A stretch of 64,000 bases of DNA from a virus. Of this stretch, positions 2 to 62,951 are shown one piece after another. Position 1 is the stretch's first letter. Every line of letters begins with the position of its first letter. The notes under the pieces are model-generated. The model did no database searches. It had not been told where the DNA came from and saw only the letters and a program-made list of their open reading frames with translations. The DNA is taken from positions 1 through 64,000 of the IMG/VR virus record IMGVR_UViG_3300033150_002410; one strand, given 5' to 3'. A program made the translations under genes and the position numbers.

Positions 2-289
2 AAGGAACTTATTTATATAGGAAGTCAATATCCTATTTGTTCTGTTATGAGAACGAGAAAATTTATAAAAAGAGGGTGGAAAATTAATGCCGGGCAGTAT
101 TTGAAGATGTTATTTCAGGTAAGTGAACTGAATCTTAAAGATATAAATGTTCTTAAAGAACAGCTAATTGGTGTAGATACTACTTATTTCATGATGTTAA
201 TAAATGCATTAGAAAAGAAGATAGAAGATGATAATGCTTTTGAAATTGACACTGAATATATTTGTAGTATTATAGATAAGATTTTTTAA
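2..289 (+). CDS. Hypothetical protein, 3' part only
   Basis: The reading frame is open from the left edge of the window, so this is the C-terminal part of a longer protein. An internal ATG at 47 has no Shine-Dalgarno sequence before it and is probably not the start. The visible part is basic at first (RTRKFIKRGWK) and then acidic and helical; I recognise no motif. It lies directly upstream of the Y-RNA-like element and the TROVE gene, but nothing in it shows a link to them. Confidence 0.55.
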   Translation, partial: KELIYIGSQYPICSVMRTRKFIKRGWKINAGQYLKMLFQVSELNLKDINVLKEQLIGVDTTYFMMLINALEKKIEDDNAFEIDTEYICSIIDKIF

Positions 290-296
290 GTTGATT

Positions 297-360
297 TCGG
301 GCCGTGATTGTAGGATTATCTTGTCATAAAGATATTCCCCTACAATGTTTATTTGCCCGA
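297..360 (+). ncRNA. Y-RNA-like hairpin upstream of the TROVE gene
   Basis: Seen: an outer stem TCGGGC (297-302) pairs with GCCCGA (355-360). An asymmetric internal loop follows (CGTG on the 5' side, GTTTATTT on the 3' side). An inner stem ATTGTAGG (307-314) pairs exactly with CCTACAAT (339-346), and a small ATCTT/AAGAT hairpin closes the top. Known: Y RNAs bind Ro60/Rsr through a basal stem that carries a short GG-CCG 5' strand and a UUG-containing 3' strand with a bulge and internal loop; this element shows the same layout and similar letters. The next gene is a TROVE protein, the Y RNA partner. Inference: this is the phage Y RNA. It has no promoter of its own that I can see. Confidence 0.55.
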
Positions 361-375
361 TATTTCAGGAAATTA

Positions 376-443
376 AGCGGGTCGGAGTTCGAGATTTATC
401 AATAGTTACCGACTTAACTATTCTCGGACAAACCTAACCCGTT
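376..443 (+). ncRNA. Possible tRNA-like fold between Y-like RNA and TROVE gene
   Basis: A 7-bp acceptor-like stem, AGCGGGT (376-382) with ACCCGTT (437-443), encloses CGAG (390-393) / CTCG (423-426). Stacked on that is a perfect 8-bp stem AATAGTTA (401-408) / TAACTATT (415-422). The six-base loop CCGACT can also pair with GTCGG at 381-385, a possible pseudoknot that would compete with the outer stem. Some bacterial Y RNAs (YrlA) carry a tRNA-mimicking module, and this may be its counterpart, although here it lies 3' of the Ro-binding stem rather than inside it. It could instead be a translational control structure, since it ends about 10 bases before the TROVE ribosome binding site. Confidence 0.35.
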
Positions 444-466
444 ATAAATTTATGGAGGAATATAAA

Positions 467-2041
467 ATGAATTACAGAGAGCATTTTAATATTAGAAAGG
501 TTTCGCAGAGTGAGCCTATACCGGGAAAGGAAATGGTTCGTAATAATGCTGGGGGTTATACTTTCAAAGTGGATGTTTGGAAGAAATTACATCGCTTCCT
601 GATTCTCGGTTCGGAGGGAGGTACTTATTATGTTTCTGAAAAGAAACTGACTGTAGATAGTGCAAAGACAGCTTTGTCTTGTATAGAAGAAGACTGGCTG
701 AGAGTAATAGATATGGTACTGGATATTAGTGAATCAGGAAAGGCTCCAAAGAATGATCCGGCTCTTTTTGTCCTGGCTATGTGTTCGTCTGCTGCAGATG
801 AAAAGGTAAGAAAGAAGGCTTTGGAAGTTCTTCCTAGGGTAGCTAGGATTGGTACTCATCTTTTCCACTTTGCAGAATATGTCGAAGGCTTCCGGGGATG
901 GGGAAGATCCCTTAGACGAGCAGTTGCAAATTGGTACTTGGATAAATCTGTAGATGACTTATCTTATCAGCTTATAAAGTATCAAAGCAGAGACGGCTGG
1001 AGCCATAAAGATTTACTGCGTCTTTCACATCCAAAGACAAAGGAAGAAGAAAAGAACAATGTTTTCCGTTGGGTGACGAAAGGAGATGTTTCTCTGACTG
1101 AGTTGCCACTGCTTACATACGCTCACGAAAAGGCAAAGAAAGCAACTACTTCAGAAGAGATTATTTCTTTGATTGAGAAATATAGTCTCCCTTGGGAAGC
1201 TATACCTACTCAATGGTTGAAGAATGCTGACGTGTGGATATCTTTGTTACCCAAACTTCCTCTTACTGCAACAATAAGAAATCTAGGAAGAATGTCTTCC
1301 TTAGGGATTTTAAATCCTTTAATGGCAGGTGAGGAACTTGTTATAAAAAAGCTTAACAAGGAATACATCCATAAGTCCAGGTTGCATCCTTTGTCAATAT
1401 TGATAGCCTTGAAGACGTATAAAAGGGGTCATGGTTTGAAAGGTAATTTGACATGGACACCTAATGGCAGAATAGTGGATGCTTTGGATGAAGCTTTTTA
1501 TTTAGCATTTGATAATGTAGAGGCTTCTGGAAAAAGGATTATGTTTGCTCTTGATGTATCAGGATCAATGAGTTGGGGTACTATTGCTGGTTTACCTATT
1601 ACTCCGAAAGAAGCATCAGCTGCAATGGCTCTTATATCTGCAAAGGTCGAACCAAATTATATGACGTTTGCCTTTAGTAATGAGTTTGTACCTGTAGATA
1701 TTTCACCTCGACAAAGGCTTGATGATGTGATAAGGAAAATGAAAGAGATAGGTTTTGGTGGCACGGATTGTGCTCTTCCTATGATATATGCATTAAAGAA
1801 TGAGATACCTGTGGATGTATTTGTAGTCTATACTGATAATGAAACATGGGTTGGAGAAACGCATCCTGTCCAAGCTTTAAATGAGTATAGACAGAAGATG
1901 AATATTCCTGCAAAGTTAATAGTTGTAGGGATGATGGCAACGGATTTTAGTATAGCAGATCCAGACGATGGGGGGATGCTTGATGTAGTGGGTTTTGATA
2001 TAGCAACCCCGCAAATAATGCATGATTTTATTCTACAATAA
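467..2041 (+). CDS. rsr: TROVE / Ro60-like RNA-binding protein (Rsr)
   Basis: A 524-aa ring protein of the Ro60/TROVE family, expected to bind Y RNA on its outer face and RNA 3' ends through its central hole. The N-terminal two thirds are alpha-helical (HEAT-like). The C-terminal third is a von Willebrand A domain with an intact metal site: DVSGSM at residues 363-368, Thr433 in FGGTD and Asp457 in YTDNE. An earlier in-frame ATG at 452 overlaps the GGAGG at 454-458, so ATG 467, eight bases after it, is taken as the start. The length fits the family. Known roles in bacteria are RNA quality control, and rRNA degradation together with PNPase. The upstream Y-RNA-like hairpin supports the call. A role for it in phage infection is not established. 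Confidence 0.9.
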   Translation: MNYREHFNIRKVSQSEPIPGKEMVRNNAGGYTFKVDVWKKLHRFLILGSEGGTYYVSEKKLTVDSAKTALSCIEEDWLRVIDMVLDISESGKAPKNDPALFVLAMCSSAADEKVRKKALEVLPRVARIGTHLFHFAEYVEGFRGWGRSLRRAVANWYLDKSVDDLSYQLIKYQSRDGWSHKDLLRLSHPKTKEEEKNNVFRWVTKGDVSLTELPLLTYAHEKAKKATTSEEIISLIEKYSLPWEAIPTQWLKNADVWISLLPKLPLTATIRNLGRMSSLGILNPLMAGEELVIKKLNKEYIHKSRLHPLSILIALKTYKRGHGLKGNLTWTPNGRIVDALDEAFYLAFDNVEASGKRIMFALDVSGSMSWGTIAGLPITPKEASAAMALISAKVEPNYMTFAFSNEFVPVDISPRQRLDDVIRKMKEIGFGGTDCALPMIYALKNEIPVDVFVVYTDNETWVGETHPVQALNEYRQKMNIPAKLIVVGMMATDFSIADPDDGGMLDVVGFDIATPQIMHDFILQ

Positions 2042-2060: not shown

Positions 2061-2462
2061 ATGACCATAGAAGAAGCTGAAAGATATCTTGGAATAAAAA
2101 TATTGGATAGGTTTAGAAATAATAATTTCTCTTTTGAACAAGCCAAAAAACTTTTAGATAATATAAAAAAAGATGTTCAGAAAATATTCAGAGAGAAAGC
2201 GAAAAAATTACATCCTGATATTTGTGGTAAACCTCATGAGGAAATGTCTCTTTTGATAGAAGCAAGGGATTGTTTATTGAGATTATGTATAGAAAGAAAA
2301 AATGTGACTGTACGTCCACCAATTGTTCGGATATGTGTGCATAAAACTCCTTTGAGGGGGTTTTTTGGTAATGCACGTCCACCAATTGTTCAGATATGTA
2401 TACACAAGACTCCTCTGAGAGATTTTTTTGATACTGCTACTAGCGATTACTATTATGTATAA
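2061..2462 (+). CDS. Small J-domain (DnaJ-like) protein with C-terminal tandem repeat
   Basis: 133 aa. The start at 2061 is chosen because AGAGGG precedes it; the frame is also open further upstream, inside the TROVE gene end. Residues of about 40-75 resemble helices II-III of a J domain, with the diagnostic HPD tripeptide in KKLHPDICG. J domains recruit and stimulate DnaK/Hsp70. No Gly/Phe linker or zinc domain follows. The C-terminus instead carries two near-identical 21-residue units beginning RPPIV and containing HKTPLR. Its place just after the TROVE gene suggests co-expression. It may redirect host DnaK to phage proteins or RNPs; the partner is unknown. Confidence 0.6.
   Translation: MTIEEAERYLGIKILDRFRNNNFSFEQAKKLLDNIKKDVQKIFREKAKKLHPDICGKPHEEMSLLIEARDCLLRLCIERKNVTVRPPIVRICVHKTPLRGFFGNARPPIVQICIHKTPLRDFFDTATSDYYYV
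2313..2438 (+). repeat. Two tandem 63-bp coding repeats in the J-domain gene
   Basis: CGTCCACCAATTGTTC occurs at 2313 and again at 2376, exactly 63 bp apart. The surrounding 63-bp units code for 21 residues each with few substitutions (RPPIVRICVHK and RPPIVQICIHK). This is an in-frame duplication that keeps the protein open. Confidence 0.85.
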
Positions 2463-39759: not shown

Positions 39760-39948
39760 TTACACCCCTCTGTTCTTCTTATTACACTCATTACAAACAT
39801 AATAAGCATCTTTATCTATTTCATCATTTTTTATTTCTTCAATTGTGAAACCAAACTGTTCCATTTTGTAATCTAGTTCTTCAATATTATCAGCATCTAT
39901 TTCAATCACTTTGCCACAAAATACACAAGAAATTGCGTAATACATCAT
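39760..39948 (-). CDS. Small zinc-ribbon-like protein, 62 aa
   Basis: It has CVFCGKVIEI near residue 8 and YVCNECNKKN near residue 52, a two-knuckle zinc ribbon enclosing an acidic helix. The start overlaps the polymerase stop (ATGA). Its position between polymerase and clamp loader suggests a small replisome accessory, but no function is known. Confidence 0.55.
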   Translation of the reverse strand: MMYYAISCVFCGKVIEIDADNIEELDYKMEQFGFTIEEIKNDEIDKDAYYVCNECNKKNRGV

Positions 39949-42515
39949 TCTTCACCTATAAAACCATATTCTTCTATACTAGCTAAAGATCCATTTATCT
40001 TTGTTTTCGACTTTTTCATTTTTAAAGGAACCACAATCCAGGGCCAATCCTTTTTTATCTTTTGTGTTCCATAAAAATGAACAAGTTCATCTATTTCATT
40101 TTCTTCTTCTGGTAATGCATCAAACATTATTTCATCATGAATCTGTCCAATTATCTTAGACTTCATACGTCTCTTTTCAATTACTCTCTGGACATCAATC
40201 AAAAGCTTCAATAAACAATGAAAAGCTGATCCCTGAAATGGATAATTAAATATTTCATTCTTCCCCAGTGGAAATCTGTATTTGAAATTAGTCAATGATT
40301 TTATATAACCATCCCTCTCATATTCCTTGATCTTCTCTCTTTTATATTTATAATAGCCCCTGAAATCTTCTAACCAGAATTCCTTTTCAATCCTTTCAAT
40401 ATGAATCATGAAATCATAAATATTTATTATCTCTTTACTCTTCAAATGTTCTTTAATTTCTTTACTTATACCATTCCAGATATTGACAGATATATTTTTC
40501 CAATAATCACCATAAAATTCCGGAAATACAAATTGATTCTTAGCCATATATCGAATTTCTGCTGTTATTTTTTCTTTCGGTAATAAAAATATTTTTTCTG
40601 CCTGATCTCTGTGCATATCTTTATTATCATCAAAAAGATAATCAATAAGCTTTTCATCCTTCGAGTAACAAGCAGCCATGGCTACTTCTATTCCAGAATA
40701 ATCATAAGCTAAAATTATATTACCTTTTGATGGAATTATAATATCTCTTATTCTCTTTCCTATTTCCTTTTCCTTTTTCGGTATATTCTGAATGTTCGGG
40801 CTATTGGAAGAAGAACGATATGTCTTAACATTAAATAAACTAAAAAATGGATATATCTTTCCCCCAATTATTTCTCTTTTGTATTGTTCAATGTAGGTAT
40901 TTTTCGCTTTTTCCCATTCCCTATAATTCAACAAATCTTTTGCAAAAGGATGTTTTATTTCCTGTAATACTTCTTTATCTATACTTTCTTTCCCCTTTGC
41001 TGTGTATTTGATTGGTTTTATTTCTAAAATGTCAAAAAACACCTTTTTCAAATGTATAGGTGAGTTTATATCAAATTTCTTCCCCTCCCAGTTTGCTATA
41101 AAATCATAAGAAAATATTTTTTCATGATATTCATTGATTTTATCTGAAATCTCGTTTGCCACTTTATTCATCTTATCATCATCAATACAAATCCCGTTAT
41201 ACTGAACCTTAGCCAAAGCATTAGCTCCTTCTGTCAGGAAAAATAATCCTTTTTTCAGATCATCATCAATTAATTCTTCATATTTCTCTTTCAATTTATA
41301 TGTAAAATAAGAATCAAGAGCACAATAATATAATAAATCTTTTATTGGAGCAGAATCCAGTCTATTAAAGGCATTAGCGCCATACCTTTCCTCCTCTTCT
41401 CTAGTTGCTGTCATATATTTATCAATAACACTATCATAATTCAGCTCACCAAATTTAACATATACAAGATATTTTAAATTATTTGGTTTCCTGTTATTAT
41501 AACAATGCGCCATCAGGATAGTATCATATTTCAGATTATTTATCCAAATACCTAATCTTGCTTTAGTCCATACCTGTTCAAATGAAATATTATGAGCTAT
41601 TTTCTCTGAATTATTACTCAACAAAGATTTTAATTTTTCCTTGAACTCAATACCATCAAAAAATGGAAAAGCATAAGATTTCTCACCATTTGAAAAAGAA
41701 AGACAAAGAATCTCCTGTCCTCCCCTTTGTGGTTTTCTGCCAGTAGTCTCATAATCCAAAGCAAATAAATTCCAAGTACCGATTTCATCTAACCAGACAA
41801 CAGCCTTGTTTTCGTCTGTTGTTGTTTCTATCTTATCCAAGTAATCAACAACAGGAAAATCTCTATTTAAATAAGTCAAACCCTCCTCTATATTCTTTTT
41901 CCACATATTCATTATAATTGATCCATCCGCATCTTCCAAACTTCTCAAAATGGAGGATGGATGATATATAGGGACAATCCAACAACCGAGTTCCTGATCG
42001 GGAATAAAAGAACCAGTCCAATTTCCGAATCTATCCTTCTTACCCGTAACATTTGCTCTTCCTTTTAATCTATAACCTATAACAGCATCAAAAGCTATAC
42101 TTCCTATCAGGAATATTAATTTTGGCTGTAAGTCTCTTATTTCTTTCTTTAAATATTTTCTGCAAGCATTTATCTGAACTTTGGTAGGTGTCTTATTTCC
42201 GGGAGGACGACACTTCACGGCATTTGTAACAAAACAATCTCTATCGAATATTATATTAAACTCTTCAAAAACCTCTCTCAAAAACTTACCGGTCTTTCCA
42301 ACAAACTGTATTCCTTTTTTATCCTCCTGTTCTCCGGGAGCCTCTCCTACAATCATTATTCCTTTTCTGCCATAACCGGAAAATTTCATTTTTGGAAAAG
42401 TACAAGATTTATAAAGGCCACAATCCTGACAAGTAGAAGCCTTATCATGTTTTCTACTATCGTTATTTGATATTTTAAGAGAAAAGTCCATGGCTTTAAA
42501 AAAAGACTTGTTCAT
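39945..42515 (-). CDS. Family A DNA polymerase fused to family 4 uracil-DNA glycosylase
   Basis: 856 aa in three domains. Residues 25-215 are a family 4 UDG: Fe-S/zinc Cys (CQDCGLYKSC), GEAPGEQED and IYHPSSILR. Residues 230-425 are a DEDD exonuclease: FALDYETTG, IAHNISFEQ and YYCALDSYFTYK. Residues 430-856 are the polymerase: motif A ILAYDYSGIEVAM, motif B region EIRYMAKNQFVFPEFYGD and motif C IGQIHDEIMFDA. It is the phage replicative polymerase. SPO1 polymerase has the same UDG-type extension. The UDG may excise uracil at the fork or read a modified base; whether it is active is unknown. Confidence 0.9.
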   Translation of the reverse strand: MNKSFFKAMDFSLKISNNDSRKHDKASTCQDCGLYKSCTFPKMKFSGYGRKGIMIVGEAPGEQEDKKGIQFVGKTGKFLREVFEEFNIIFDRDCFVTNAVKCRPPGNKTPTKVQINACRKYLKKEIRDLQPKLIFLIGSIAFDAVIGYRLKGRANVTGKKDRFGNWTGSFIPDQELGCWIVPIYHPSSILRSLEDADGSIIMNMWKKNIEEGLTYLNRDFPVVDYLDKIETTTDENKAVVWLDEIGTWNLFALDYETTGRKPQRGGQEILCLSFSNGEKSYAFPFFDGIEFKEKLKSLLSNNSEKIAHNISFEQVWTKARLGIWINNLKYDTILMAHCYNNRKPNNLKYLVYVKFGELNYDSVIDKYMTATREEEERYGANAFNRLDSAPIKDLLYYCALDSYFTYKLKEKYEELIDDDLKKGLFFLTEGANALAKVQYNGICIDDDKMNKVANEISDKINEYHEKIFSYDFIANWEGKKFDINSPIHLKKVFFDILEIKPIKYTAKGKESIDKEVLQEIKHPFAKDLLNYREWEKAKNTYIEQYKREIIGGKIYPFFSLFNVKTYRSSSNSPNIQNIPKKEKEIGKRIRDIIIPSKGNIILAYDYSGIEVAMAACYSKDEKLIDYLFDDNKDMHRDQAEKIFLLPKEKITAEIRYMAKNQFVFPEFYGDYWKNISVNIWNGISKEIKEHLKSKEIINIYDFMIHIERIEKEFWLEDFRGYYKYKREKIKEYERDGYIKSLTNFKYRFPLGKNEIFNYPFQGSAFHCLLKLLIDVQRVIEKRRMKSKIIGQIHDEIMFDALPEEENEIDELVHFYGTQKIKKDWPWIVVPLKMKKSKTKINGSLASIEEYGFIGEE

Positions 42516-43775: not shown

Positions 43776-43944
43776 TTACCTTCGTCATATAAACATTATC
43801 CTTCAACTTCTTCTCAATATTAAAAATTAACGATAAAAGAATATTTTGATTAAGCTCTCCATAAACTATTTGAGCTTTCATTTTATTTATTGCTTCCATT
43901 ACATCAACAAAACCTTTTTCTGTTATTATAGGATCGTCATACAT
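43762..43944 (-). CDS. Hypothetical protein, 60 aa
   Basis: A short helical protein (GFVDVMEAINKMKAQIVYGE and NQNILLSLIFNIEKKLKDN) overlapping genes on both sides, which argues that it is translated as part of the chain. No motif is recognised. Confidence 0.45.
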   Translation of the reverse strand: MYDDPIITEKGFVDVMEAINKMKAQIVYGELNQNILLSLIFNIEKKLKDNVYMTKVNEDA

Positions 43945-45185
43945 GCTTTTATTCTCCTTATATATTCAAGTTTAGCTTCTGCTTTATTCATTACTTTTTT
44001 CCAATCCTTGTATTTATTAGCCCACGTTTGATTTTTTACCCACTTGTATGCCCTTTCGACCTTTTTTAAATCTTTTTCCTCGTTTTTATATACATGCTCC
44101 ATGACTTTAGCAAAATCCTCAGCCCTTACCAATCTTCTTATAGTTCCATTGTCAATGGAACCATAACAGATATACTGCCCCTCTGGTGTAACAAGATTAC
44201 CCATCTTTCCACCAGCTAATATCTCATTTAAACTGCTGTTTCGAGGAAAGATTATATGTCTTTTACAAGCCATAGCCTCTAAAACGCTTAAACCAAATCC
44301 CTCTCCCAAAGTAGTGGAAATAACTACATTAGCAGTATTATAAATTTTGTTCACAACCTCTTCCGTATATCCAAAAGAAGCAGAATAATTAACTGGAGCA
44401 AACCAATCTTTTCCATATTCAAGATCAAAAAACTCAGCCATTTTTATAAGGTTTCCTCCCTGATCTTCTATAGCAGCAAGCAGAAACAGCAAAGCATTAT
44501 TACATATATATTTTTTGAAAAGATTAAAAGCCTCAAAAGTTCTTAACAAATCTTTTCTTGTTTGATTTCTATTCACATTCAAGATAATATACCTGTTCTC
44601 TAATGAAACAGGACCTATAAAACATTCTTTCTTAAATCTTTCTATCTCCTCTTTTTCCAACGGTTTGAAAATATCCGTATCCACACCATGATAAATTACA
44701 TCGATTTGTTCCAGACTTTTTTTATATTTCATACATTGTGATTTGCCATAATAAGTATAAGCCACAGGGAAATCAACTTTACTTATGGTTTCTACCCATT
44801 CTTTTCTCATAGAACAGTCTACAGGAAAGTAGTAAACAGAAACAAATTTCTTAGAACTTTCTAATTTCTCATTACACTCTTTTACTTTATCTATAATTGT
44901 TTCTAACGTAAATGGATCATGCATAATCCACAGGAAATCATATTTGCCCGTGGATAACATATCCAATAATTTCTGCCTGCCGAGAAGATCATTATATCTT
45001 TTATTGAGATTTCCTTTGGCTGGATAAATATTTACTTTTTTAAAATTATGTGGATCTCCATTATAATTAATCCCTAAGACGTCTATTTCGTATTCCTCAC
45101 GAAAAAATCTAAGGAGGCTTCTGGCCACCATTGAAAAACCGGTAAATCCGGTAGGTGTATCTGACCACCACAAAATCTTTTTCAT
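43926..45185 (-). CDS. GT-B glycosyltransferase (GT4-like)
   Basis: 419 aa. The N-terminal lobe has SDTPTGFTGFSMVARSLLRF, the acceptor site loop. The C-terminal lobe has ILNVNRNQTRKDLLRTFEAF and the nucleotide-sugar site TLGEGFGLSVLEAMACKR (E-x7-E). It would transfer a sugar from a nucleotide donor. It has its own promoter (45207-45235) and stands apart from the other sugar genes by the helicase-primase block. Targets could be modified phage DNA bases, virion proteins or the host surface. Confidence 0.8.
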   Translation of the reverse strand: MKKILWWSDTPTGFTGFSMVARSLLRFFREEYEIDVLGINYNGDPHNFKKVNIYPAKGNLNKRYNDLLGRQKLLDMLSTGKYDFLWIMHDPFTLETIIDKVKECNEKLESSKKFVSVYYFPVDCSMRKEWVETISKVDFPVAYTYYGKSQCMKYKKSLEQIDVIYHGVDTDIFKPLEKEEIERFKKECFIGPVSLENRYIILNVNRNQTRKDLLRTFEAFNLFKKYICNNALLFLLAAIEDQGGNLIKMAEFFDLEYGKDWFAPVNYSASFGYTEEVVNKIYNTANVVISTTLGEGFGLSVLEAMACKRHIIFPRNSSLNEILAGGKMGNLVTPEGQYICYGSIDNGTIRRLVRAEDFAKVMEHVYKNEEKDLKKVERAYKWVKNQTWANKYKDWKKVMNKAEAKLEYIRRIKACMTIL

Positions 45186-45206
45186 AATACTTCCCCCTCT
45201 TGTTTT

Positions 45207-45235
45207 ATAATAACAATATTAAAGAAATAAATCAA
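45207..45235 (-). promoter_or_regulatory. Leftward promoter inside the replication block
   Basis: On the minus strand, TTGATT (45235-45230), 17-bp spacer, TATTAT (45212-45207), followed by GAGGGGG and the ATG at 45185. It would feed the glycosyltransferase, clamp, polymerase and later genes separately from the main promoter. Confidence 0.65.
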
Positions 45236-45242
45236 TACTTTT

Positions 45243-46676
45243 TTATAAAAATGAACCATTTTTTTTATCTCTTTTCTCTTTTGCCTCATCTTTTTTATCA
45301 TATAAAACTTTATCTATTGGTAAAGCATCTATATAAAATTTTCCAATATCAAGACAGGATAAACATAATAACTCCTTATTAACACCTTCTCCTTCCCTCT
45401 CAGATAACACTTCCATTCTGAAAACTGAATTTCTTCTGTCAACTCTGCTCTGATTAATACCTATCATTCTGGTAACATGAGCCAACTTTCTTATATCCTC
45501 TGCCACATTCTCCTCAGACACATCACTATTTATACTGCCCCTGTTTGATTGCGATACAGTAAATATACATATATTTCTCTCTAGAGCCAACCTTCTTAAA
45601 TTTTTCCATACATAATCAATTTGATGCCTGTATTCCATGTTTTTATCAACAACAATTAAATCAGCATAATCAATAAAAATGACATCAGGAATAAAAGAAT
45701 AGTAATATTCCAGAATATCGAAATGAGCCTCTAAATCCTCAACAGAACAACTATTGGCAGGCAAGTTGAGCAACTTTGCTTTCCCTTCTCTTAGATATTT
45801 CTTTATTCTTTTCTGTTCTCTTTCTATTCCATTCCTATCTAGTGGAAAACCTTCTCTATGCTCCAGAGAATACTGTATTTCAAAATAACCATCATCCACT
45901 TCTTCAAAATATGGTATTCTTACATCCATACTCTTCTTAGGTCTTCCAGTAAAAGACTGCCAGATTCTTCTTAGAACTTGTTCTCTTGTCATTTCCATGG
46001 AAATAAAAAGAACATTGTTTCCATAGGTAAGAGCACATTCCATAGAAAAAAGCAAAGCCCATGTTTTCCCTCTTTTAGTAAAAGCTAAGAAAGATATAAA
46101 ATCTCCTCTATTACAAAAACCAAAAATATCTCTCATTTCTCCAGGAAAACAAAAAAGACTATCTTTCTCTTCATTAAACGCCTTAATAATTGCATCTGTA
46201 TCTTCAATTATATCTACATCTTCTATCGTATTACTAGTTACCCTTTTATATTTTGTAATATTCTGTTCAGCCTTAAGAAGATTATTACTTTGAATGTTTG
46301 TCTGTACATCTTCAACAAGAACTTCTAATGATCTCTTTTTCAAATATTCTATAGCCGTATCAAGCAGGTATTTTGTGTTAGTAGTTGTATATTCATCTGA
46401 AAGATTAGCAATAAGAGAGCCTATTAGCTTTGCATCATCTTCGTCCTTAATAGCATTCTTTTTGTTGAAAAAGATGTCTTCTATAACATTTTTTGGTGAT
46501 TCCTTATACCTCTCATAATATTCTATAATCCATTTAGCCAGAATTCTTGAATATCTGGATTTGAAATAATTTATCTTTAATACCGGCAAAATACCACAAA
46601 GAAATTCTGAAGATACAATCATATTTATGAGTATTTTTTTCTCGTGATCGATATGCACAGGACTACGTTTAAACAT
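45243..46676 (-). CDS. dnaB: DnaB-like replicative helicase
   Basis: 477 aa. A helical N-terminal domain of about 170 residues (HIDHEKKILINMIVSSEFLC) is followed by a RecA-fold motor. Walker A is FLAFTKRGKTWALLFSMECA, Walker B VIFIDYADLIVVD, and the glutamine sensor is IFTVSQSNRGS. FISMEMTREQVLRRIWQ is the typical DnaB segment after Walker A. The Walker A reads TKRGKT, where G-x4-GK is usual; this is slightly unusual. It is encoded next to primase and SNF2 helicase genes. It unwinds DNA 5' to 3' as a hexamer. Confidence 0.85.
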   Translation of the reverse strand: MFKRSPVHIDHEKKILINMIVSSEFLCGILPVLKINYFKSRYSRILAKWIIEYYERYKESPKNVIEDIFFNKKNAIKDEDDAKLIGSLIANLSDEYTTTNTKYLLDTAIEYLKKRSLEVLVEDVQTNIQSNNLLKAEQNITKYKRVTSNTIEDVDIIEDTDAIIKAFNEEKDSLFCFPGEMRDIFGFCNRGDFISFLAFTKRGKTWALLFSMECALTYGNNVLFISMEMTREQVLRRIWQSFTGRPKKSMDVRIPYFEEVDDGYFEIQYSLEHREGFPLDRNGIEREQKRIKKYLREGKAKLLNLPANSCSVEDLEAHFDILEYYYSFIPDVIFIDYADLIVVDKNMEYRHQIDYVWKNLRRLALERNICIFTVSQSNRGSINSDVSEENVAEDIRKLAHVTRMIGINQSRVDRRNSVFRMEVLSEREGEGVNKELLCLSCLDIGKFYIDALPIDKVLYDKKDEAKEKRDKKNGSFL

Positions 46677-48273
46677 TTTTCAGCCTTTTCTTTATCAGTA
46701 AATCAAGAATGTCTTCTTCACCAAAGAAACTGATATCTTCCTCCTTATCGAGTATTCTCTTTACAAGCTTGAACTTCTCTGTCAAAGCCAAAGCCATTTC
46801 ATCCTCTACCGTTCCTGGAGCTATCAAATAATAAATCTGTACATTGTCTTTCGTTCCTATTCTATGACACCTATCTGTTGCCTGTTCCATATCAGCTGGA
46901 ACCCACCAAAGCTCGGAAAAAAGAACCGTGGAAGAAATAGTTAAATCTATTCCCAAACCAGTTGCCAGAATTTGACCTAGAAAAATCTTAATATTGCTAT
47001 CATTATTATAAATCCTTAAAAGATATTCCCTCTGTTTCATAGGAACAGAACCATCTACAACAACCGTAACATTACGAAAGTAAGAAAAAATGTCTTTTAT
47101 TACATGCCTATGATATGCAAAAATTACTATTTTATCTCTTTGCTTTATCAAAGAGTCTATATACTCTAACATACTTTTTCTCTTTGCCATATAGGCAATT
47201 TCTTTCAAATGCTCAAATTTATTCTTTATCTCCATTTTCTTTATTTTCTTTTCCGACTTGATTATTTCTCCTATCTTTTCATTCTCATAAGCATATTCTG
47301 AAATATATTTATCATCAAGATCCAAAGGTATTATAAACTTTTGTTTCTCTGGTATCTCCGATAAAACATCCTCTTTTTTCCTTCTTAAAATATATGGTTC
47401 TACTAAATCAACTAATTCATCAATGTTAGAAGCACCATCAAATTTCCAACCCCATCTAGTCAGGACAGGGTTACAATATCTCTGTAAAAAGTGCCATCTA
47501 TTAAAAAATATCTTTGGTGCAATGAGAGATAATACATTATATAATTCTCTAGGTCTGTTCCTTAGTGGTGTTCCAGATAAGAAAACTTTATACTTAATCT
47601 TTCTTGCCAAGGAAATAAAAGCTTTCGTTCTTTTGGCTTTATGATTAGAAATATATTGAACTTCATCCCCTATTATACAATCAAAACCCTCATCCAGTAA
47701 TTCCTGTAAATGTTTGTATAAAATATCGTAACTTATTATTATAACATTGCTTTGTGGTTTATACTTGTAAAATATTGCAGATGATATATCTCCCCATTCT
47801 AAAAGTTCTCTCTGCCATTTTATTCTTATAAACGAGGGACAAACAATTATGACTTTCTTGACATCTTTCCTTATCCTAAGCCAGGAAACAGCTTGAGCTG
47901 TTTTCCCTACACCCATATCATCCGCTATAATGCAGTTACCATCAGTTCCCTCGATAAACTCTATTCCCTTTATCTGATAATTAAATAATCTACTGTCAAC
48001 TGCTTTCCTGTCTATTTTCTTGAAAATTTTTCCTTTCTTGTTTTTCTTTCCTTCATCAACAGAAAAATCACCTTGTTTTGCAAATCCTAACGAAAGAAGC
48101 CTTTCTACATTTTCTCTTGAATTTCTAGCAAACCATGTTTTAGTACTGGATACGAAATATCTGTTATCCAATCTTTTGATTCCTAAAAGAGTTCTTTGAA
48201 AATCATCTCTATCGAGATTGTTAAATTTAATCTTCAATAGACCACTATACTTATCTAATTGAAATACTTTCAT
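46669..48273 (-). CDS. SNF2-family helicase/translocase (SMARCAL1-like)
   Basis: 534 aa. An N-terminal 90-residue domain (FNNLDRDDFQRTLLGIKRL, then STKTWFARNS) looks like the HARP-type region of annealing helicases. The SF2 core follows: Walker A IIADDMGVGKTAQAV, motif II GDEVQYISN (DEVQ in place of DEAH), motif III FLSGTPLRNRP, motif V GLGIDLTISSTVLFSELWW and motif VI QATDRCHRIG. It would rewind or remodel replication forks. Overlaps dnaB by eight bases and primase by four. Confidence 0.85.
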   Translation of the reverse strand: MKVFQLDKYSGLLKIKFNNLDRDDFQRTLLGIKRLDNRYFVSSTKTWFARNSRENVERLLSLGFAKQGDFSVDEGKKNKKGKIFKKIDRKAVDSRLFNYQIKGIEFIEGTDGNCIIADDMGVGKTAQAVSWLRIRKDVKKVIIVCPSFIRIKWQRELLEWGDISSAIFYKYKPQSNVIIISYDILYKHLQELLDEGFDCIIGDEVQYISNHKAKRTKAFISLARKIKYKVFLSGTPLRNRPRELYNVLSLIAPKIFFNRWHFLQRYCNPVLTRWGWKFDGASNIDELVDLVEPYILRRKKEDVLSEIPEKQKFIIPLDLDDKYISEYAYENEKIGEIIKSEKKIKKMEIKNKFEHLKEIAYMAKRKSMLEYIDSLIKQRDKIVIFAYHRHVIKDIFSYFRNVTVVVDGSVPMKQREYLLRIYNNDSNIKIFLGQILATGLGIDLTISSTVLFSELWWVPADMEQATDRCHRIGTKDNVQIYYLIAPGTVEDEMALALTEKFKLVKRILDKEEDISFFGEEDILDLLIKKRLKNV

Positions 48274-49142
48274 AAAAGTTTCCTTTTCAATAATCTAGCT
48301 TCAATATTAGACATATCAGCTACATCCTTGTATTCATTAAGTCTGATTATTTCTACCTCTTTTACCCCAACCAAGGACAGTTCTTCACCATATCTATTTG
48401 CTCTTTTCTGAGCCTCTTCTTCATTGTCAAATAAAATAAAAACAGAATCAAATTGAGACAGAAGACATAACTGTTTTTTCGTCATATACATTCCACAAGA
48501 AGCCACACAATTATTTCCCAATTTAAAGACATCAAAAACCCCCTCCACAAGTATAACTTTATACCCATCTACTTTATCTATATTGAAAAGGAAATCTTTT
48601 ATATCAACCAGTGAATCTTCAGGTCTAGCTGATAAGTATTTAGGTTCCTGTTGTTTATAAATAGCCCTCCCTTGAAAAGTTACTATTCTCCCTCCGTAAT
48701 AAAAGGGAATTATAATTCTATACTTATATATTCCCGTATAACCACCACTTCTAAGATCAAATTCTTCAACAAGTTCTTTCCAATCAAAACCCCTGTTACT
48801 TAAATACTTTTTCTCATTTTCATTCAGGGGCAAATCAGGAATGTTAATATTCCTCTTGATTTCCTCAGTTGTTTCTCCATACTCAACGCTATCAGAAAAT
48901 AATTTATATATCCTATAAGCTTCTTCCTTGGTAACAGAAAGCAAACCCATTATTGAATTGACTATCGAAACATGACCACAAACCCAACAAAAAAAATAAC
49001 CTTTAATCAGGTTGAAACCAAGATGGTTGCTGACGTCATCATGGAAAGGACACTTCATTCCTATCCATTCTCTGCCTACATTTTTTCCCTTTTCCGTATA
49101 AGGTATTTTATACTCCTTCAAGAAAGAAACACAATCAAACAT
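48270..49142 (-). CDS. DnaG-type primase
   Basis: 290 aa. A zinc-binding domain (CPFHDDVSNH ... FFCWVCGH) is followed by a linker and a Toprim domain (YKVILVEGVFDVFKLG and FILFDNEEEAQKRANRY). It is shorter than host DnaG because it lacks the C-terminal helicase-binding domain. It makes RNA primers for lagging-strand synthesis, working with the nearby DnaB-like helicase. Confidence 0.85.
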   Translation of the reverse strand: MFDCVSFLKEYKIPYTEKGKNVGREWIGMKCPFHDDVSNHLGFNLIKGYFFCWVCGHVSIVNSIMGLLSVTKEEAYRIYKLFSDSVEYGETTEEIKRNINIPDLPLNENEKKYLSNRGFDWKELVEEFDLRSGGYTGIYKYRIIIPFYYGGRIVTFQGRAIYKQQEPKYLSARPEDSLVDIKDFLFNIDKVDGYKVILVEGVFDVFKLGNNCVASCGMYMTKKQLCLLSQFDSVFILFDNEEEAQKRANRYGEELSLVGVKEVEIIRLNEYKDVADMSNIEARLLKRKLL

Positions 49143-50019
49143 CCAATCTTTCCAGCAAGGCTGTTACATCTAAAGCTAGTTTTGTTGTAAATGATTTATT
49201 ATTTGTTAGAATATATGTATAAAAATGATCTATAGCATACTTCAAGTTGTTACTCTCATCATCATGGAATTTTCTTTCCATCAGGATGAGTTCTTTTCCT
49301 GTTTTATTAAATGGATGATCATATATAACAACTTTTCCCGAATAATCTTTATTGTGTGGAGAAAAAATATAAGCATGCGTTGTACCATAGAAATTGACGG
49401 ATAATTCTTTACCAGGATAATCCAAACTGGTAAATATCTTTATAACCAATTTCTCTTTTTTATGTTCTAAGTGAAGAATACCTGTAGTAACAACACCTCC
49501 CCAATATTTAAGATCCTCTTTTATTACTCTGAAATTCGATAAGGGCCCGTATAAATAATCAATAATGGGCAGAAAATGAGAAGACAGCAACCAGTAAACA
49601 CTATATCCATTATATTTTCCCAAGTGTTTAGATTGCATCTCTATATAATTAATTTCCTTTTTTCTGAAAAAAGCTATGATTTTAGCAAGTGTTCTTGAGA
49701 ATAGAAGAACATAATCAACAACCAACACAAGGTTTCTTTCTTCTGCTATTCTGATAAGTGATTCAGCTTCTCTTGCCTTTCTGCTTATAGGTTTCTCCAG
49801 AAAGACATTCTTGCCGGATAGTAATGCCTTCTTGGCTATTCTATAATGAGTATCAATAGGTGTAGCTATAAATACATGCTTTACCTCTGGATCCTTCCAG
49901 ATCTTTTTCAAAGGAAATTTTGAATCAGCTATATATTTCATGTCAAAAAAATATGGAATATACTTTTTAAGCTTACTTCCCCAATAACCGTTACCAATTA
50001 ACGCTACTTTGTCTTTCAT
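49135..50019 (-). CDS. Gfo/Idh/MocA-family sugar oxidoreductase
   Basis: 294 aa. Rossmann motif VALIGNGYWGSKLKKYIP, the segment VFIATPIDTHYRIAKKAL, and the catalytic-lysine signature GKNVFLEKPISRKAREAESL place it in this NAD(P)-dependent family. It oxidises or reduces a sugar or sugar nucleotide, for example at C3. Adjacent glycosyltransferases and UDP-galactopyranose mutase suggest it makes an unusual sugar donor. It overlaps the primase start by eight bases. Confidence 0.82.
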   Translation of the reverse strand: MKDKVALIGNGYWGSKLKKYIPYFFDMKYIADSKFPLKKIWKDPEVKHVFIATPIDTHYRIAKKALLSGKNVFLEKPISRKAREAESLIRIAEERNLVLVVDYVLLFSRTLAKIIAFFRKKEINYIEMQSKHLGKYNGYSVYWLLSSHFLPIIDYLYGPLSNFRVIKEDLKYWGGVVTTGILHLEHKKEKLVIKIFTSLDYPGKELSVNFYGTTHAYIFSPHNKDYSGKVVIYDHPFNKTGKELILMERKFHDDESNNLKYAIDHFYTYILTNNKSFTTKLALDVTALLERLDV

Positions 50020-51303
50020 TTATGTCTCCCTGTTATTCTTCTGTATTCCTTCGTTATATAAATCAATCTTCTTGGAAATAATACCTCTCCATATTTTCCA
50101 GTCTTCTCTGCTTATCTCAGGAGTAAAATAATTGAACCCACTTTGATGCGAATACAAAGATAACATCTCCTTGTCTTTTGATAAATCCTCTACTAAACCT
50201 TTCTTTCTACAATCTTCATACAATTCAGTGCCTGGATAAGGAGTAAAAATACTTAATGTTATTTTTGAAGGGCAAAGATCCTCCATTACAAATGAAACAG
50301 TTTCCAGAATATCATCAATTGTTTCTTCCGGAAAACCGATTATTACGTAAGCCTTCCATTTCATGTTATATTTTTTAAAAATCTCAGCAACCTGTACATA
50401 ATCCTCTATCTTTTCTCCTTTACCTATATAAGAAAGTATTTTATTCTTTGCGCTTTCAACACCCACATTTATTTCTATACAACCAGAATCAGCCATAACC
50501 TTAACCATTTCTTCATTCAAAACATTAGCCCTGCTTTCACAAATCCATTCAGCATCTATAGTATATTTGGTACAAAAATCAAATAATCTCTTTTTGTTAA
50601 GAGTAAAGACATCATCCCATATAGTAAAAACATTGTTATTAAATAACGACTTTATATAAGACATTTCCTTGATGATATAATCAGCACTCTTATAGCAAAC
50701 ACTTCTACCTCCGATAAGACGGGTAGAGCAGAACTTACACTTGAATGGGCATCCTCTAGACGTAATAATATGTCCATAAGAATTTCTATATTTATAAGTA
50801 TCAACTAACATATCATAATCGGGCAAAGGAAGAGAGTCTAAACAGTATTTTCCCGACGGAAGATCCTCAAAATAACCTCTATGTACCTTTACATTATCAA
50901 ACTTGTCATAATGGGATGGAAAATATGTAGGATGCAAACCACCAACTATTACCGGGATATCATACCTTAATGCTATTTTTATTATTTTTATAGCAGAAGC
51001 ATACATAGCATTTTTTACAGTAATTCCTATTTGATCCGGCTTTTCTTTTTTTATATATTCTTCTACCTCATCCCATATTTCACTCTTTACATTATCTACA
51101 TATCTTTCATATCTGAAAATCCTTTCAGAGTAACCCTTATAGGCGCATCTCCTTCTATCTATCTCAAAGTTCTTAATAGTTACTTTTACAGAACCATCCA
51201 TACATTTAAGCCAAGATCCTACAGCAAGAAGAGACAAGGGAACATATTCCTGTTCAAGTTCATAAAATCTTGAAAACGGGGGATTAATTAATAAAATGTG
51301 CAT
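50020..51303 (-). CDS. B12-binding-type radical SAM protein
   Basis: 427 aa. The N-terminal domain has the cobalamin-binding fold pattern (HILLINPPFSRFYELEQEYV, VPVIVGGLHPTYFPSHYDKF without a clear DxHxxG). The radical SAM core carries CPFKCKFC for a 4Fe-4S cluster, and later GVESAKNKILSYIGKG and YVIIGFPEETIDDI. Family members methylate or rearrange unactivated carbon atoms. In this sugar cluster it might alter a sugar, lipid or nucleotide. Flanked by the oxidoreductase and the mutase. Confidence 0.82.
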   Translation of the reverse strand: MHILLINPPFSRFYELEQEYVPLSLLAVGSWLKCMDGSVKVTIKNFEIDRRRCAYKGYSERIFRYERYVDNVKSEIWDEVEEYIKKEKPDQIGITVKNAMYASAIKIIKIALRYDIPVIVGGLHPTYFPSHYDKFDNVKVHRGYFEDLPSGKYCLDSLPLPDYDMLVDTYKYRNSYGHIITSRGCPFKCKFCSTRLIGGRSVCYKSADYIIKEMSYIKSLFNNNVFTIWDDVFTLNKKRLFDFCTKYTIDAEWICESRANVLNEEMVKVMADSGCIEINVGVESAKNKILSYIGKGEKIEDYVQVAEIFKKYNMKWKAYVIIGFPEETIDDILETVSFVMEDLCPSKITLSIFTPYPGTELYEDCRKKGLVEDLSKDKEMLSLYSHQSGFNYFTPEISREDWKIWRGIISKKIDLYNEGIQKNNRET

Positions 51304-51312
51304 TACATACCT

Positions 51313-52356
51313 CTATATTTTTTCAGATAGATCAATAGCCCTTTTTACGGCTTCGTCCATATTAATATAATCATACATGGCCAATCTTCCAAGCAAAATA
51401 ACATTTTGTGGGATCATTTTTTTATATTCCGAGTATAAAAGGAGATTTTCTCTATCCTGAAAAGGATAAAATCTCATATTCCAATTAATTATCCCCTCAT
51501 CAACAAATGATGTTGTATATAAAGTTGGTTTTTTATAATTATATTTGTCAGAATATTCAGTAGAGATGACAGTTCCATCTTTTTTCTTTGCTGTAGAGGA
51601 TGAAAAATATGCATGATCTATTTTCCGTATATGCTTTTCGTGATATAAGCAACTATTAATAGCCCCACAAAGTAATCTTACTTTTTTATAATTATATTCA
51701 ATGTTTAACGATCTATAATAAAGAGGCCCGCGCACACAACGGAACATCTCATCTATACTTCCAGTATATATGTATAAATCAGCCTTCTGTCCCTTCCACT
51801 CGTTTTTGTCTACACCTAGATGACAAGGAATCTTGCTTATCATCCGTTCAAACATATTACTGTACCCATCTGTTGGAACACCTTGATACTTATCAAAGAA
51901 AAAATTATTACCACTATCATCTGAAATTAAAGGAACTCTATTCTTTATCATATCAGGTAAATTATTAAAGTCCTTCTCCCATTGTTTATAACTGTATGGC
52001 TTCATTACATAATTTATTATTATTCTTCTCAATTTCTCATCATTTTCCCAGATTGTAAAATTACTGGCTCTAGCTGGAAGATACAAGGAACCAATTTCCG
52101 TTACAGCCATTACGGAATGTTTATATTCATACATATCAGTAAACTGCCTTACAAAATCCCAAACTTCCTTTCTTTCTGTGTGTAAAATATGTCCTCCATA
52201 TCTATGAATCTTTATCCCGTCATGAGAAACAGAATCAGAACATAACCCTCCGAAAAACGGATTACATTCAAATATTTCAACAGAATGTCCCTTCTTCTTC
52301 AAAAGATAAGCTATTGAACATCCCGAAAGACCAGCCCCCACCACCACTACTTTCAT
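51313..52356 (-). CDS. glf: UDP-galactopyranose mutase
   Basis: 347 aa. FAD-binding VVVVGAGLSGCSIAYLLKKK, then FFGGLCSD, the substrate loop YGGHILHTERKEVWDF, YSYKQWEKD and PTDGYSNMFERM; all are characteristic of UGM. It converts UDP-galactopyranose to UDP-galactofuranose. Length is close to bacterial Glf (about 370). Coupled to the next glycosyltransferase by ATGA, which hints that this transferase uses galactofuranose. Phage-encoded UGM is uncommon. Confidence 0.85.
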   Translation of the reverse strand: MKVVVVGAGLSGCSIAYLLKKKGHSVEIFECNPFFGGLCSDSVSHDGIKIHRYGGHILHTERKEVWDFVRQFTDMYEYKHSVMAVTEIGSLYLPARASNFTIWENDEKLRRIIINYVMKPYSYKQWEKDFNNLPDMIKNRVPLISDDSGNNFFFDKYQGVPTDGYSNMFERMISKIPCHLGVDKNEWKGQKADLYIYTGSIDEMFRCVRGPLYYRSLNIEYNYKKVRLLCGAINSCLYHEKHIRKIDHAYFSSSTAKKKDGTVISTEYSDKYNYKKPTLYTTSFVDEGIINWNMRFYPFQDRENLLLYSEYKKMIPQNVILLGRLAMYDYINMDEAVKRAIDLSEKI

Positions 52357-53615
52357 ACAACCACTCCCTTGTTCTCAAGTATTCCTCTTATATCACTTAT
52401 CCTTTTTTCCAAGGTAAAATTACTCATTACAAATGCTCTGCCATTTTTTATTATGCTATAAGCAAGATCCTTATTATTTAATAAATCCCTGGCTTTTGCC
52501 TCAAAATTATGACAATCAACCCTCACATAGTTTACTCCATCTTCAAATCCCAGGTCTGCCATTTCTGAACACCAATCGGACATTAATACCGTTCCCGATG
52601 CCATGATCTCAAATAATTTACAAACAACATATTCCTGCACTGTAATGTCCGTTAATGAAAAAAGATAACTATTTATAAGTTCAGCATAATTATCCCCAAC
52701 ATAAATATCTTTCTTTTTGCTTATGTTATGATAACCTGGATGTGGAATAACATCAAATAAAGGACTCTTGCTTGCTGCTCTTCTCAATGGATAAAAATCA
52801 GAGATATAACCAGTTATAAGTCCTTTGTCTTTCTTTTCCTTTATTTCCAGCGATAAATATCTGGATGTTGGAGCAATAAAGGCAGGAACATATTCCGTCT
52901 TATGCATATATTCCGGAAAGGACATATAAAAAACATCTCTGTATGTTATCAGAATCAGATCTGATCTATCCAATGCTGCTTTCAAACGTTTATTTACAAA
53001 CTCCTCTCCTCCATGTATATCCTGAATATATGCAACATAATAAACAGAATCAGGAAGAGACTCTATATTTATCAATACATCAGGAAAAGCATGTTGTGGT
53101 GATTTTATAGTGAACAAAATATCTCCCTCTATATCTTTTACATTAAGCTGTGGAGAACATATCAACTTCCAATTAAACTCATCACTCAATGCTTCTGCAA
53201 AAAAACTAAGCATGTCTGCAGGATGATTATCTCTCCACAAGCAGGAAGGAATATATACAGTTCCGGAATATGGAGAATCATTAACATATTTAAAAACAGA
53301 ACCATCTCTACAAGAAACTGTTCGTTTACTAAGACTGTCAGCTACAGTATAATATTTCATTCCAGAACCCTCCGATGCCTCTCTTATCGTTTTATACCTT
53401 CCCAGTTCTACATTATCCTTGTAATGAATAATAATATCTTTTTTTCTTTTCCATATTTTTCTTTTTTTATTTGTATTTCCCTTCGTCTTATCCTTTGCTG
53501 GTATCGTCTCAGGTAAAGCACCATCATTGAATATATTATCTCCACACCAATCCGATATTCTTACATGTTTAGGAACATCTGGATATTCTCTGCTATGCGG
53601 AATAAGATATTCCAT
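52353..53615 (-). CDS. Glycosyltransferase with N-terminal NUMOD-like module
   Basis: 420 aa. The C-terminal 280 residues form a GT-B type transferase: LWRDNHPADMLSFFAEALSD, YIQDIHGGEEFVNKRL, PHPGYHNISKKKDIYVG and VCKLFEIMASGTVLMSDWC. Near residues 65-115 is a repeat like NUMOD1 of homing endonucleases (GRYKTIREASEGSGMKYYTV, then DGSVFKYV), a DNA-binding helix-turn-helix. Fusion of such a module to a glycosyltransferase could bring it to DNA. No nuclease motif is present. UGM lies directly downstream. Confidence 0.75.
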   Translation of the reverse strand: MEYLIPHSREYPDVPKHVRISDWCGDNIFNDGALPETIPAKDKTKGNTNKKRKIWKRKKDIIIHYKDNVELGRYKTIREASEGSGMKYYTVADSLSKRTVSCRDGSVFKYVNDSPYSGTVYIPSCLWRDNHPADMLSFFAEALSDEFNWKLICSPQLNVKDIEGDILFTIKSPQHAFPDVLINIESLPDSVYYVAYIQDIHGGEEFVNKRLKAALDRSDLILITYRDVFYMSFPEYMHKTEYVPAFIAPTSRYLSLEIKEKKDKGLITGYISDFYPLRRAASKSPLFDVIPHPGYHNISKKKDIYVGDNYAELINSYLFSLTDITVQEYVVCKLFEIMASGTVLMSDWCSEMADLGFEDGVNYVRVDCHNFEAKARDLLNNKDLAYSIIKNGRAFVMSNFTLEKRISDIRGILENKGVVV

Positions 53616-53619
53616 TTTC

Positions 53620-54357
53620 TCAATTCTCTATTATTTTCAAAGATTCTCCAAAATACTTATCAAATGACTGGTTCTTTCTGAATCCATGCGATTCACTAAG
53701 TATTGAATCTTCTCCTATATGTTGTACATAACATGGACAGGAAGCATATATCTTGCGTGTAGGAAAACATTTTTTAAGCCACCTTGCTAATAGAATATCT
53801 CCACCACAAGTCTCCTCTCTCCTGTCCGCTCTTTTCAATTCACAAGCATATCCCCAGGCATGTTGGGCCCTTAGAGCATGACAAACAGAACCATAATATT
53901 TTTCATGAGGATAAATCCATTTATCCTCACCTCTCTCGGCACAATGAAGGACTTCAACATAAGAAGCATAAAAAGCCCACATGATTGCTTCCGGATATCT
54001 AGTAATAAATGAATTTACATGAGTTAAAAAATCAGGTCTTACAACAACATCATCCTGCATATATATTACAAACTCAGCTCCTGTATGCACACAGTGCTTT
54101 AAGAGCTTGGCCCTGTTAGCATTGGCACTTATTTTTTCCTTGCTATAAAGAATTTCTAACATATCCCAGAACATATAATATTCTTTAGTATAATCACAAA
54201 CATGAAGCAAACCGTTCTGAGATCCGGAATCCGAAACTACTACGCGTACATCGCTTCGATCAAAAACTCCGGAAAGATATAAACTTTTCAGTGTTGTTTT
54301 CAAGTAATTTCTTTTCGGATACCTGTTAACTGTAGTAATCCCTATAATATACTTCAT
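53620..54357 (-). CDS. GT-A-like glycosyltransferase
   Basis: 245 aa from ATG 54357, eight bases after TTGAGG. N-terminal KYIIGITTVNRYPKRNYLKT and VVVSDSGSQNG give the nucleotide-binding region, and FVIYMQDDVVVRPDFL contains the metal-binding DD motif. The C-terminal half has GGDILLARWLKKCFP and YVQHIGEDS. It is a short family 2-type transferase. Overlap-free spacing to the neighbours is under 12 bases. Confidence 0.78.
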   Translation of the reverse strand: MKYIIGITTVNRYPKRNYLKTTLKSLYLSGVFDRSDVRVVVSDSGSQNGLLHVCDYTKEYYMFWDMLEILYSKEKISANANRAKLLKHCVHTGAEFVIYMQDDVVVRPDFLTHVNSFITRYPEAIMWAFYASYVEVLHCAERGEDKWIYPHEKYYGSVCHALRAQHAWGYACELKRADRREETCGGDILLARWLKKCFPTRKIYASCPCYVQHIGEDSILSESHGFRKNQSFDKYFGESLKIIEN

Positions 54358-54365
54358 TGATGGCC

Positions 54366-62633: not shown

Positions 62634-62635
62634 TA

Positions 62636-62948: not shown

Positions 62949-62951
62949 TAC

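What the first reader, a model, noticed from the sequence alone, without database searches (positions are those of the whole stretch)
297..2041. TROVE protein with an adjacent Y-RNA-like hairpin
A full-length Ro60-like gene with an intact metal site is preceded by a nested hairpin that has Y RNA layout (GGGCCG 5' strand, UUUG 3' strand, internal loop, upper stem). Rsr and Y RNA genes are known in some bacteria and mycobacteriophages. A phage Ro RNP could guide degradation of host rRNA or protect phage RNA.
Basis: partly seen in the sequence, partly recalled or inferred. Interest (0 to 1): 0.72.

Follow-up and report, generated by a model that had tools for sequence, protein, structure and literature searches.

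The report
Phage Ro protein with Y RNAs
This bacterial virus carries its own copy of the ring-shaped Ro60 RNA-handling protein together with three small partner RNAs, a protein-RNA particle known from animals and some bacteria, and the partner RNAs lack the tRNA-like part that defines the known bacterial type.

Summary
The ORF at 467-2041 is a full-length Ro60/Rsr (TROVE plus vWA; AlphaFold model TM 0.94 to Xenopus Ro) with an intact metal site and the Ro Y-RNA-binding residues. The hairpin at 296-361 is a Y RNA. The two strongest sigma-70 sites on the + strand lie directly upstream of these two loci. In 80 related rsr loci the model gives 102 hits, all on the rsr strand, none inside rsr; 26 related terminase loci without rsr give none. 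So this is a phage Ro RNP. It differs from YrlA/RYPER systems: none of its Y RNAs has the tRNA-like module, and the phage encodes no PNPase, RtcB or RNA ligase. In relatives, many Y RNAs are capped by an anticodon-like arm or fused into a tRNA; the third Y RNA here has that cap. Identity is well supported; function is inferred.

The parts
246..273 (+). Sigma-70-type promoter TTGACA-16-TATTAT (11/12), predicted to start the Y-A/Y-B/rsr transcript about 15-20 nt before Y-A
   Evidence: one of only two sites with 11 or more of 12 matches on the + strand of the 69,865-nt genome; the other is 6 nt upstream of the third Y RNA
296..361 (+). Y RNA A: lower stem (6 of 7 pairs), bulged C303, upper stem, UUAUC at the 5' side of the loop
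   Evidence: R1 37.0 bits, E 1.2e-5; RF01656 26.5 bits, E 0.0012; fold z -5.26
376..443 (+). Y RNA B: lower stem 7/7 (one G-U), bulged C383, upper stem, UUAUC, extended apical hairpin; ends 9 nt before the rsr Shine-Dalgarno sequence
   Evidence: R1 26.3 bits, E 0.0023; fold z -4.05
453..457 (+). Shine-Dalgarno GGAGG of rsr
   Evidence: read directly
467..2041 (+). rsr: Ro60 orthologue, TROVE ring plus vWA domain, 524 aa
2061..2462 (+). ORF 19 nt after rsr with a weak J-domain match and an HPD motif; possible operon partner
   Evidence: PF00226 E 0.0066, below the curated cut-off

Best explanation
The phage encodes a Ro ribonucleoprotein. One sigma-70 promoter (246-273) makes an RNA with two short Y RNAs (A and B) followed by rsr; a second, stand-alone promoter makes Y RNA C (G000:66603-66664). 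Each Y RNA binds the outer face of the Rsr ring through its lower stem with the bulged C, as in animal and bacterial Ro RNPs, and so stabilises Rsr and gates which RNAs can enter or touch the ring. During infection the RNP handles structured or broken RNA (host rRNA, tRNA fragments), with degradation done by host exonucleases because the phage has no PNPase of its own. Shown here by sequence: the protein, its metal and RNA-contact residues, the three Y RNAs, their linkage to rsr across phages, and the promoter-like sites. Inferred: transcription, binding, gating, and the RNA-turnover role. The confidence given is for the Ro RNP with three Y RNAs; for the RNA-turnover role alone I would say about 0.45.
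For: Rsr identity and fold. Residues aligned with Ro K170, R174 and H187 are K171, R175 and H188, invariant in 32 viral Rsr. R1, trained without this genome, gives exactly 3 hits in it. In 80 rsr loci: 102 hits in 62 loci, all on the rsr strand, 89 upstream and 13 downstream, none inside rsr. In two whole bacterial genomes of 7.0 and 6.3 Mb the only hit is the one at rsr, and all 3 further bacterial rsr loci from a phylum-wide search have hits on the rsr strand. No hits in 26 related terminase loci without rsr. Lower and upper stems covary: score 0.738 against 0.235 shuffled and at most 0.156 slid. The only two + strand promoter-like sites with 11/12 matches sit just upstream of the two Y loci.
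Against: No expression or binding data. Y-B scores weakly (26 bits). No hit to any Rfam family at the curated cut-off. No YrlA-type effector module and no phage PNPase, so the best-studied bacterial Ro mechanism (PNPase tethering) lacks its known adaptor here. The host is unknown.
Confidence: 0.8

Rival explanations
1. Leader autoregulation: Y-A and Y-B are not released but act as Rsr binding sites in the 5' leader of rsr mRNA. Rsr bound to Y-B, 9 nt before the Shine-Dalgarno sequence, shuts off its own translation; only Y-C is a true free Y RNA.
For: Y-B ends at 443 and the SD is 453-457. In relatives the nearest hairpin often lies 19-42 nt before rsr. A and B score lower than C and keep the Ro-binding stem but not the canonical apical loop.
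Against: 13 of 102 hits in relatives lie downstream of rsr and Y-C has its own promoter-like site, so the RNAs are not only leaders. This does not exclude a dual role.
Confidence: 0.2
2. YrlA/RYPER-type machine: Y RNA tethers Rsr to host PNPase through a tRNA-like module to degrade structured RNA.
For: Rsr plus Y RNA is the same core; several related phages do carry YrlA-like RNAs (L001, L007, L009).
Against: In this genome there is no YrlA match up to E 10 and none of the three Y RNAs contains D or T arms. A separate degenerate tRNA-like sequence lies 75 nt upstream of Y-C, not within it.
Confidence: 0.15
3. tRNA-mimic decoy: phage Y RNAs present anticodon-arm-like loops on an Rsr scaffold to absorb host anticodon nucleases or tRNA-binding factors.
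For: Y-C is capped by UUAUC-CUGCUAA-GAUAA, a stem with a 7-nt YUNNNRA loop. 13 of 73 related simple Y RNAs show this against 1.1 +/- 1.0 in shuffles. tRNA-fused Y RNAs contain a covarying anticodon stem and T arm.
Against: Y-A and Y-B lack the loop; most simple relatives do too. The similarity may only reflect descent from tRNA. The motif was noticed after seeing the data. No nuclease was tested.
Confidence: 0.15
4. Chance or unrelated hairpins next to a horizontally acquired rsr.
For: The genome is AT-rich and hairpins are common; no Rfam family matches at its cut-off.
Confidence: 0.02

Closest known systems
Bacterial Rsr-YrlA Ro RNP / RYPER (Deinococcus radiodurans, Salmonella; PMC8394870, PMC4726728)
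   Same: Rsr ring protein encoded next to Y RNA whose terminal stem is the Ro-binding site
   Different: Here three short hairpins, none with the tRNA-like effector module; no PNPase in the phage; separate promoter-like site for the third RNA
Mycobacteriophage Rsr and Y RNAs (Chen et al. 2014, as cited in PMC12282133) and 356 phage records with Rsr homologues
   Same: Phage-borne rsr with Y RNA genes upstream; Dandelion (L009) has a YrlA-like RNA and a plain Y hairpin
   Different: Different phage lineage (AT-rich, Rsr at most 49% identical, no DNA match); no YrlA-like RNA
Nematode stem-bulge RNAs / animal Y RNAs (RF01656; PMC4450293, PMC4726728)
   Same: Seven-pair lower stem, bulged C, upper stem, UUAUC at the 5' side of the loop; several related phage Y RNAs score 29-38 bits with RF01656
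   Different: Shorter loop, phage context, no sign of the poly-U tail
Listeria phage CKA15 putative Y RNAs (PMC12282133)
   Same: Abundant phage ncRNAs near an Rsr-like gene
   Different: There proposed from expression and gene proximity, here from structure and covariation

Membership tests
Ro60/Rsr protein family | TROVE ring plus vWA domain over full length | tested here: met
   (TM 0.92-0.94 to Xenopus Ro structures)
Ro60/Rsr protein family | MIDAS DxSxS...T...D | tested here: met
   D363 S365 S367 T433 D457, invariant in 32 viral proteins
Ro60/Rsr protein family | Residues at Ro K170, R174, H187 needed for Y RNA binding (H187S in PMC11277228; K170/R174 from memory) | tested here: met
   K171, R175, H188
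Ro60/Rsr protein family | Binds Y RNA and 3' ends of misfolded RNA | not testable with these tools
   needs a binding assay
Y RNA (Ro-binding RNA) | About 7-pair lower stem formed by the ends, single bulged C, bulge on the opposite strand (PMC4726728) | tested here: met
   Y-A 6/7 pairs, Y-B 7/7, Y-C 7/7, bulged C in all three
Y RNA (Ro-binding RNA) | Conserved structure supported by covariation and linkage to rsr | tested here: met
Y RNA (Ro-binding RNA) | Bound and stabilised by Rsr in cells | not testable with these tools
   needs RNA-seq or pull-down
YrlA (RF02553) / RYPER | tRNA-like effector module (D, T, acceptor arms) within the Y RNA | tested here: not met
   No RF02553 match up to E 10 in the genome; no T-arm after UUAUC in any of the three Y RNAs
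YrlA (RF02553) / RYPER | Partner PNPase | tested here: inconclusive
   Phage has none; the host enzyme is possible
rsr-yrl-rtcBA RNA repair operon | rtcB/rtcA linked to rsr | tested here: not met
   No RtcB or RNA ligase family match in the genome; rtcA not searched

The most novel reading that the evidence does not exclude
Phage Y RNAs are built on tRNA. In the fused forms seen in relatives, the Ro-binding stem is inserted between the D arm and the anticodon arm of an otherwise complete tRNA, with either an open acceptor stem (a circular permutation of YrlA) or a closed one. The short Y RNAs, including Y-C of this phage, would be the Ro stem capped by the remaining anticodon arm. The phage Ro RNP would then act by presenting tRNA parts, for example to blunt anticodon-nuclease defences or to route tRNA fragments.
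Probability: 0.3. Interest if true: 0.82.

Novelty: new variant of a known kind. Interest (0 to 1): 0.58.

Why it matters
Rsr genes are annotated in hundreds of phage genomes, but their RNA partners mostly are not. The model built here finds short, tRNA-less Y RNAs in most related phage rsr loci and in bacterial rsr loci, which makes the open question of what phage Ro RNPs do directly testable. The short phage Y RNAs match nematode stem-bulge RNAs better than bacterial YrlA, sharing the UUAUC loop motif, although a review (PMC4726728) describes bacterial Y RNAs as not homologous with the vertebrate clades. The tRNA-fused forms in relatives suggest where bacterial Y RNAs may come from.

Tried and rejected
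Rfam at gathering thresholds: nothing in the window. YrlA in the genome: none. Megablast of the first 25 kb against phages: no match. Terminase relatives to find sister phages with rsr: 26 loci, none had rsr within reach; used as negative control. Exact pattern of the small tRNA-like elements in viral contigs: none. PADLOC for Rsr and two downstream ORFs: none. I first read the tRNA-Y fusions in relatives as tRNAs whose anticodon arm is replaced by a Y stem; the loop test showed that the anticodon arm is kept in many and the Y stem is inserted before it. Key papers on bacterial Y RNAs (Chen 2013 and 2014, Sim and Wolin 2018, Sim 2020, Wang 2018) are not held, so whether the open-acceptor fusions are already described could not be checked.

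Full report
What is there. The window is bases 1-64000 of a 69,946-base virus record. The first and last 81 bases are identical, so the map is circular, 69,865 bases. Gene content is that of a tailed phage: small terminase, portal, major capsid, tape measure, family A DNA polymerase. The ORF from ATG 467 to 2041 is a Ro60/Rsr protein: Pfam TROVE and vWA_Ro60, PHROG 850, D. radiodurans Rsr E 8e-135 and human RO60 E 5e-132 over the full length. An AlphaFold model (pLDDT 92.7, pTM 0.90) matches Xenopus Ro and recent Ro60-RNA structures at TM 0.92-0.94. The metal-site residues D363, S365, S367, T433, D457 and the residues aligned with Ro K170, R174, H187 (K171, R175, H188) are invariant in 32 viral Rsr proteins. 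That H187S loses Y RNA binding is from PMC11277228; the role of K170/R174 is from memory.

The hairpins. Bases 290-451 fold into two separate hairpins, z -4.84. The second, 376-443, has the same parts: a lower stem, a bulged C, an upper stem and UUAUC at the 5' side of the loop. Rfam has no match at its cut-offs, but below cut-off 293-363 matches RF01656, nematode stem-bulge RNAs, at E 0.0012; these are described as Y RNA homologues (PMC4726728) with a conserved UUAUC loop motif (PMC4450293).

Independent test. I fetched 80 virus loci encoding relatives of Rsr, picked hairpins near them, and built covariance model R1 from 19 of them, with no sequence from this genome. In the whole phage genome, both strands, R1 has exactly three hits: G000:66603-66664 (64.2 bits, E 1.9e-11), 296-361 (37.0, 1.2e-5) and 376-443 (26.3, 0.0023). 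Calibration of R1 was short, so E-values are rough. Over a set of 80 rsr loci (viral, named phages and two bacterial MAGs) R1 has 102 hits at E up to 0.01: all on the rsr strand, in 62 loci, 89 upstream, 13 downstream, none inside rsr; 30 loci have two or more. In two whole bacterial genomes of 7.0 and 6.3 Mb the single hit in each is the one at rsr. Three further bacterial rsr loci from a 299-genome search all have hits on the rsr strand. In 26 loci with related terminases and no rsr there is no hit in 206 kb. Covariation on the 102 hits: 88% of cells paired against 61% shuffled, covariation score 0.738 against 0.235 shuffled and at most 0.156 when slid. That alignment is fitted to the model and the training hairpins were chosen by folding, so the absolute numbers lean upward; the location statistics do not share that bias.

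Transcription. On the + strand of the genome only two sites match the sigma-70 consensus at 11 of 12 or better: TTGACA-16-TATTAT at 246-273, 22 nt before Y-A, and TTGACT-17-TATAAT at 66568-66596, 6 nt before Y-C. Weaker sites are no more common than in shuffled sequence, so only these two are used. This suggests two transcription units: Y-A, Y-B, rsr, then an ORF with a weak J-domain match; and Y-C alone or with the genes after it. Y-B ends 9 nt before the rsr Shine-Dalgarno sequence, so Rsr binding there could also control rsr translation.

How it most likely works. By established knowledge of Ro RNPs, Y RNA binds the outer face of the ring through the lower stem and controls access of other RNAs (PMC4726728). 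This phage has the ring and three such RNAs, but no tRNA-like module in any of them, no YrlA match and no PNPase, RtcB or RNA ligase. I therefore favour a Ro RNP in which short Y RNAs stabilise and gate Rsr while host enzymes do any cutting. A PNPase tether of the YrlA type is not supported in this genome. Transcription, binding and function are all inferred.

Relatives and the tRNA link. Related loci hold three forms. (i) Short hairpins as here. (ii) YrlA-like RNAs with a closed acceptor (L001, L007, L009; RF02553 below cut-off). (iii) Open tRNA cloverleafs with a Y stem inserted (ARAGORN with introns; in L002, L037 and L044 they score 45-55 bits as tRNA in Rfam). In many of (ii) and (iii) the segment after UUAUC is an anticodon arm with a 7-base YUNNNAA loop, a variable loop and a T arm; anticodon-stem and T-stem pairs covary. 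Among short hairpins, 13 of 73 have an anticodon-like apical loop against 1.1 +/- 1.0 in shuffles; Y-C of this phage (UUAUC-CUGCUAA-GAUAA) is of this type. This was noticed after the fact and applies to a subset; Y-A and Y-B lack it. Several short phage Y RNAs and one bacterial one score 29-38 bits with the nematode family, one above its cut-off of 38.

Known or new. Phage Rsr is widely annotated (356 phage records), a structure of a distant Ro60 from Thermus phage phiLo is deposited (9l5y), and Y RNAs in mycobacteriophages are cited to Chen et al. 2014 (PMC12282133). So the kind is known. What differs here is the set of three short Y RNAs without tRNA-like module, with a strong promoter-like site before each of the two Y loci, in a lineage with no close DNA match. 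I call it a new variant of a known kind.

Noticed in passing
G000:66603-66664 (L095:6603-6664), outside the window: Third and best-scoring Y RNA (64.2 bits), 6 nt after a near-perfect sigma-70 promoter, 75 nt after a degenerate tRNA-Ile-like sequence (66451-66528, 28.2 bits, just under the tRNA cut-off).
   Followed up: yes
L002:2752-2875, L013:1743-1890, L034:2078-2206, L037:2071-2194, L044:1979-2103 and 2109-2239, L049:3671-3808, L055:2254-2377, L079:269-391 and 399-529, L083:2361-2487, L087 (four copies), L090:684-808 and others: tRNA cloverleafs with intact acceptor, D and T arms and a Y RNA stem inserted before the anticodon arm, in the order 3' strand, short loop, 5' strand: a circular permutation of YrlA. 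Several per locus, different acceptor stems; L083 encodes CCA.
   Followed up: partly
window 62588-62660 and 62899-62972; G000:67599-67672 and 68041-68112: Four related intergenic elements of about 73 nt: small tRNA-like fold with acceptor-like stem and T arm (TTCGA/TTCAA loop) but no anticodon arm, followed by a GCTTG..CAAGC hairpin. No copies found elsewhere by exact pattern.
   Followed up: partly
window 2061-2462: ORF right after rsr with an HPD J-domain-like motif and a tandem repeat of about 22 residues (RPPIVRICVHKTPLR-FF); Pfam DnaJ below cut-off.
   Followed up: no
window 39945-42515 (- strand): Uracil-DNA glycosylase domain fused to the N-terminus of a family A DNA polymerase.
   Followed up: no
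record ends 1-81 and 69866-69946: The record has identical 81-base ends, so it is a circular or circularly permuted map.
   Followed up: yes
L045:2214-2287, L072:1824-1892, L013:2203-2269, L131:3109-3177: Phage and bacterial short Y RNAs match the nematode stem-bulge RNA family RF01656 at 32-38 bits, suggesting a link between animal and prokaryotic Y RNAs through the lower stem and UUAUC.
   Followed up: partly
L062:1412-1469: Type-P1 twister ribozyme-like match (45.6 bits, below cut-off) upstream of a phage rsr locus.
   Followed up: no
window 43926-55523 (- strand): Run of glycosyltransferase-, radical-SAM- and oxidoreductase-like genes, an unusual sugar or surface-modification cluster in a phage; read from the translations only.
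   Followed up: no
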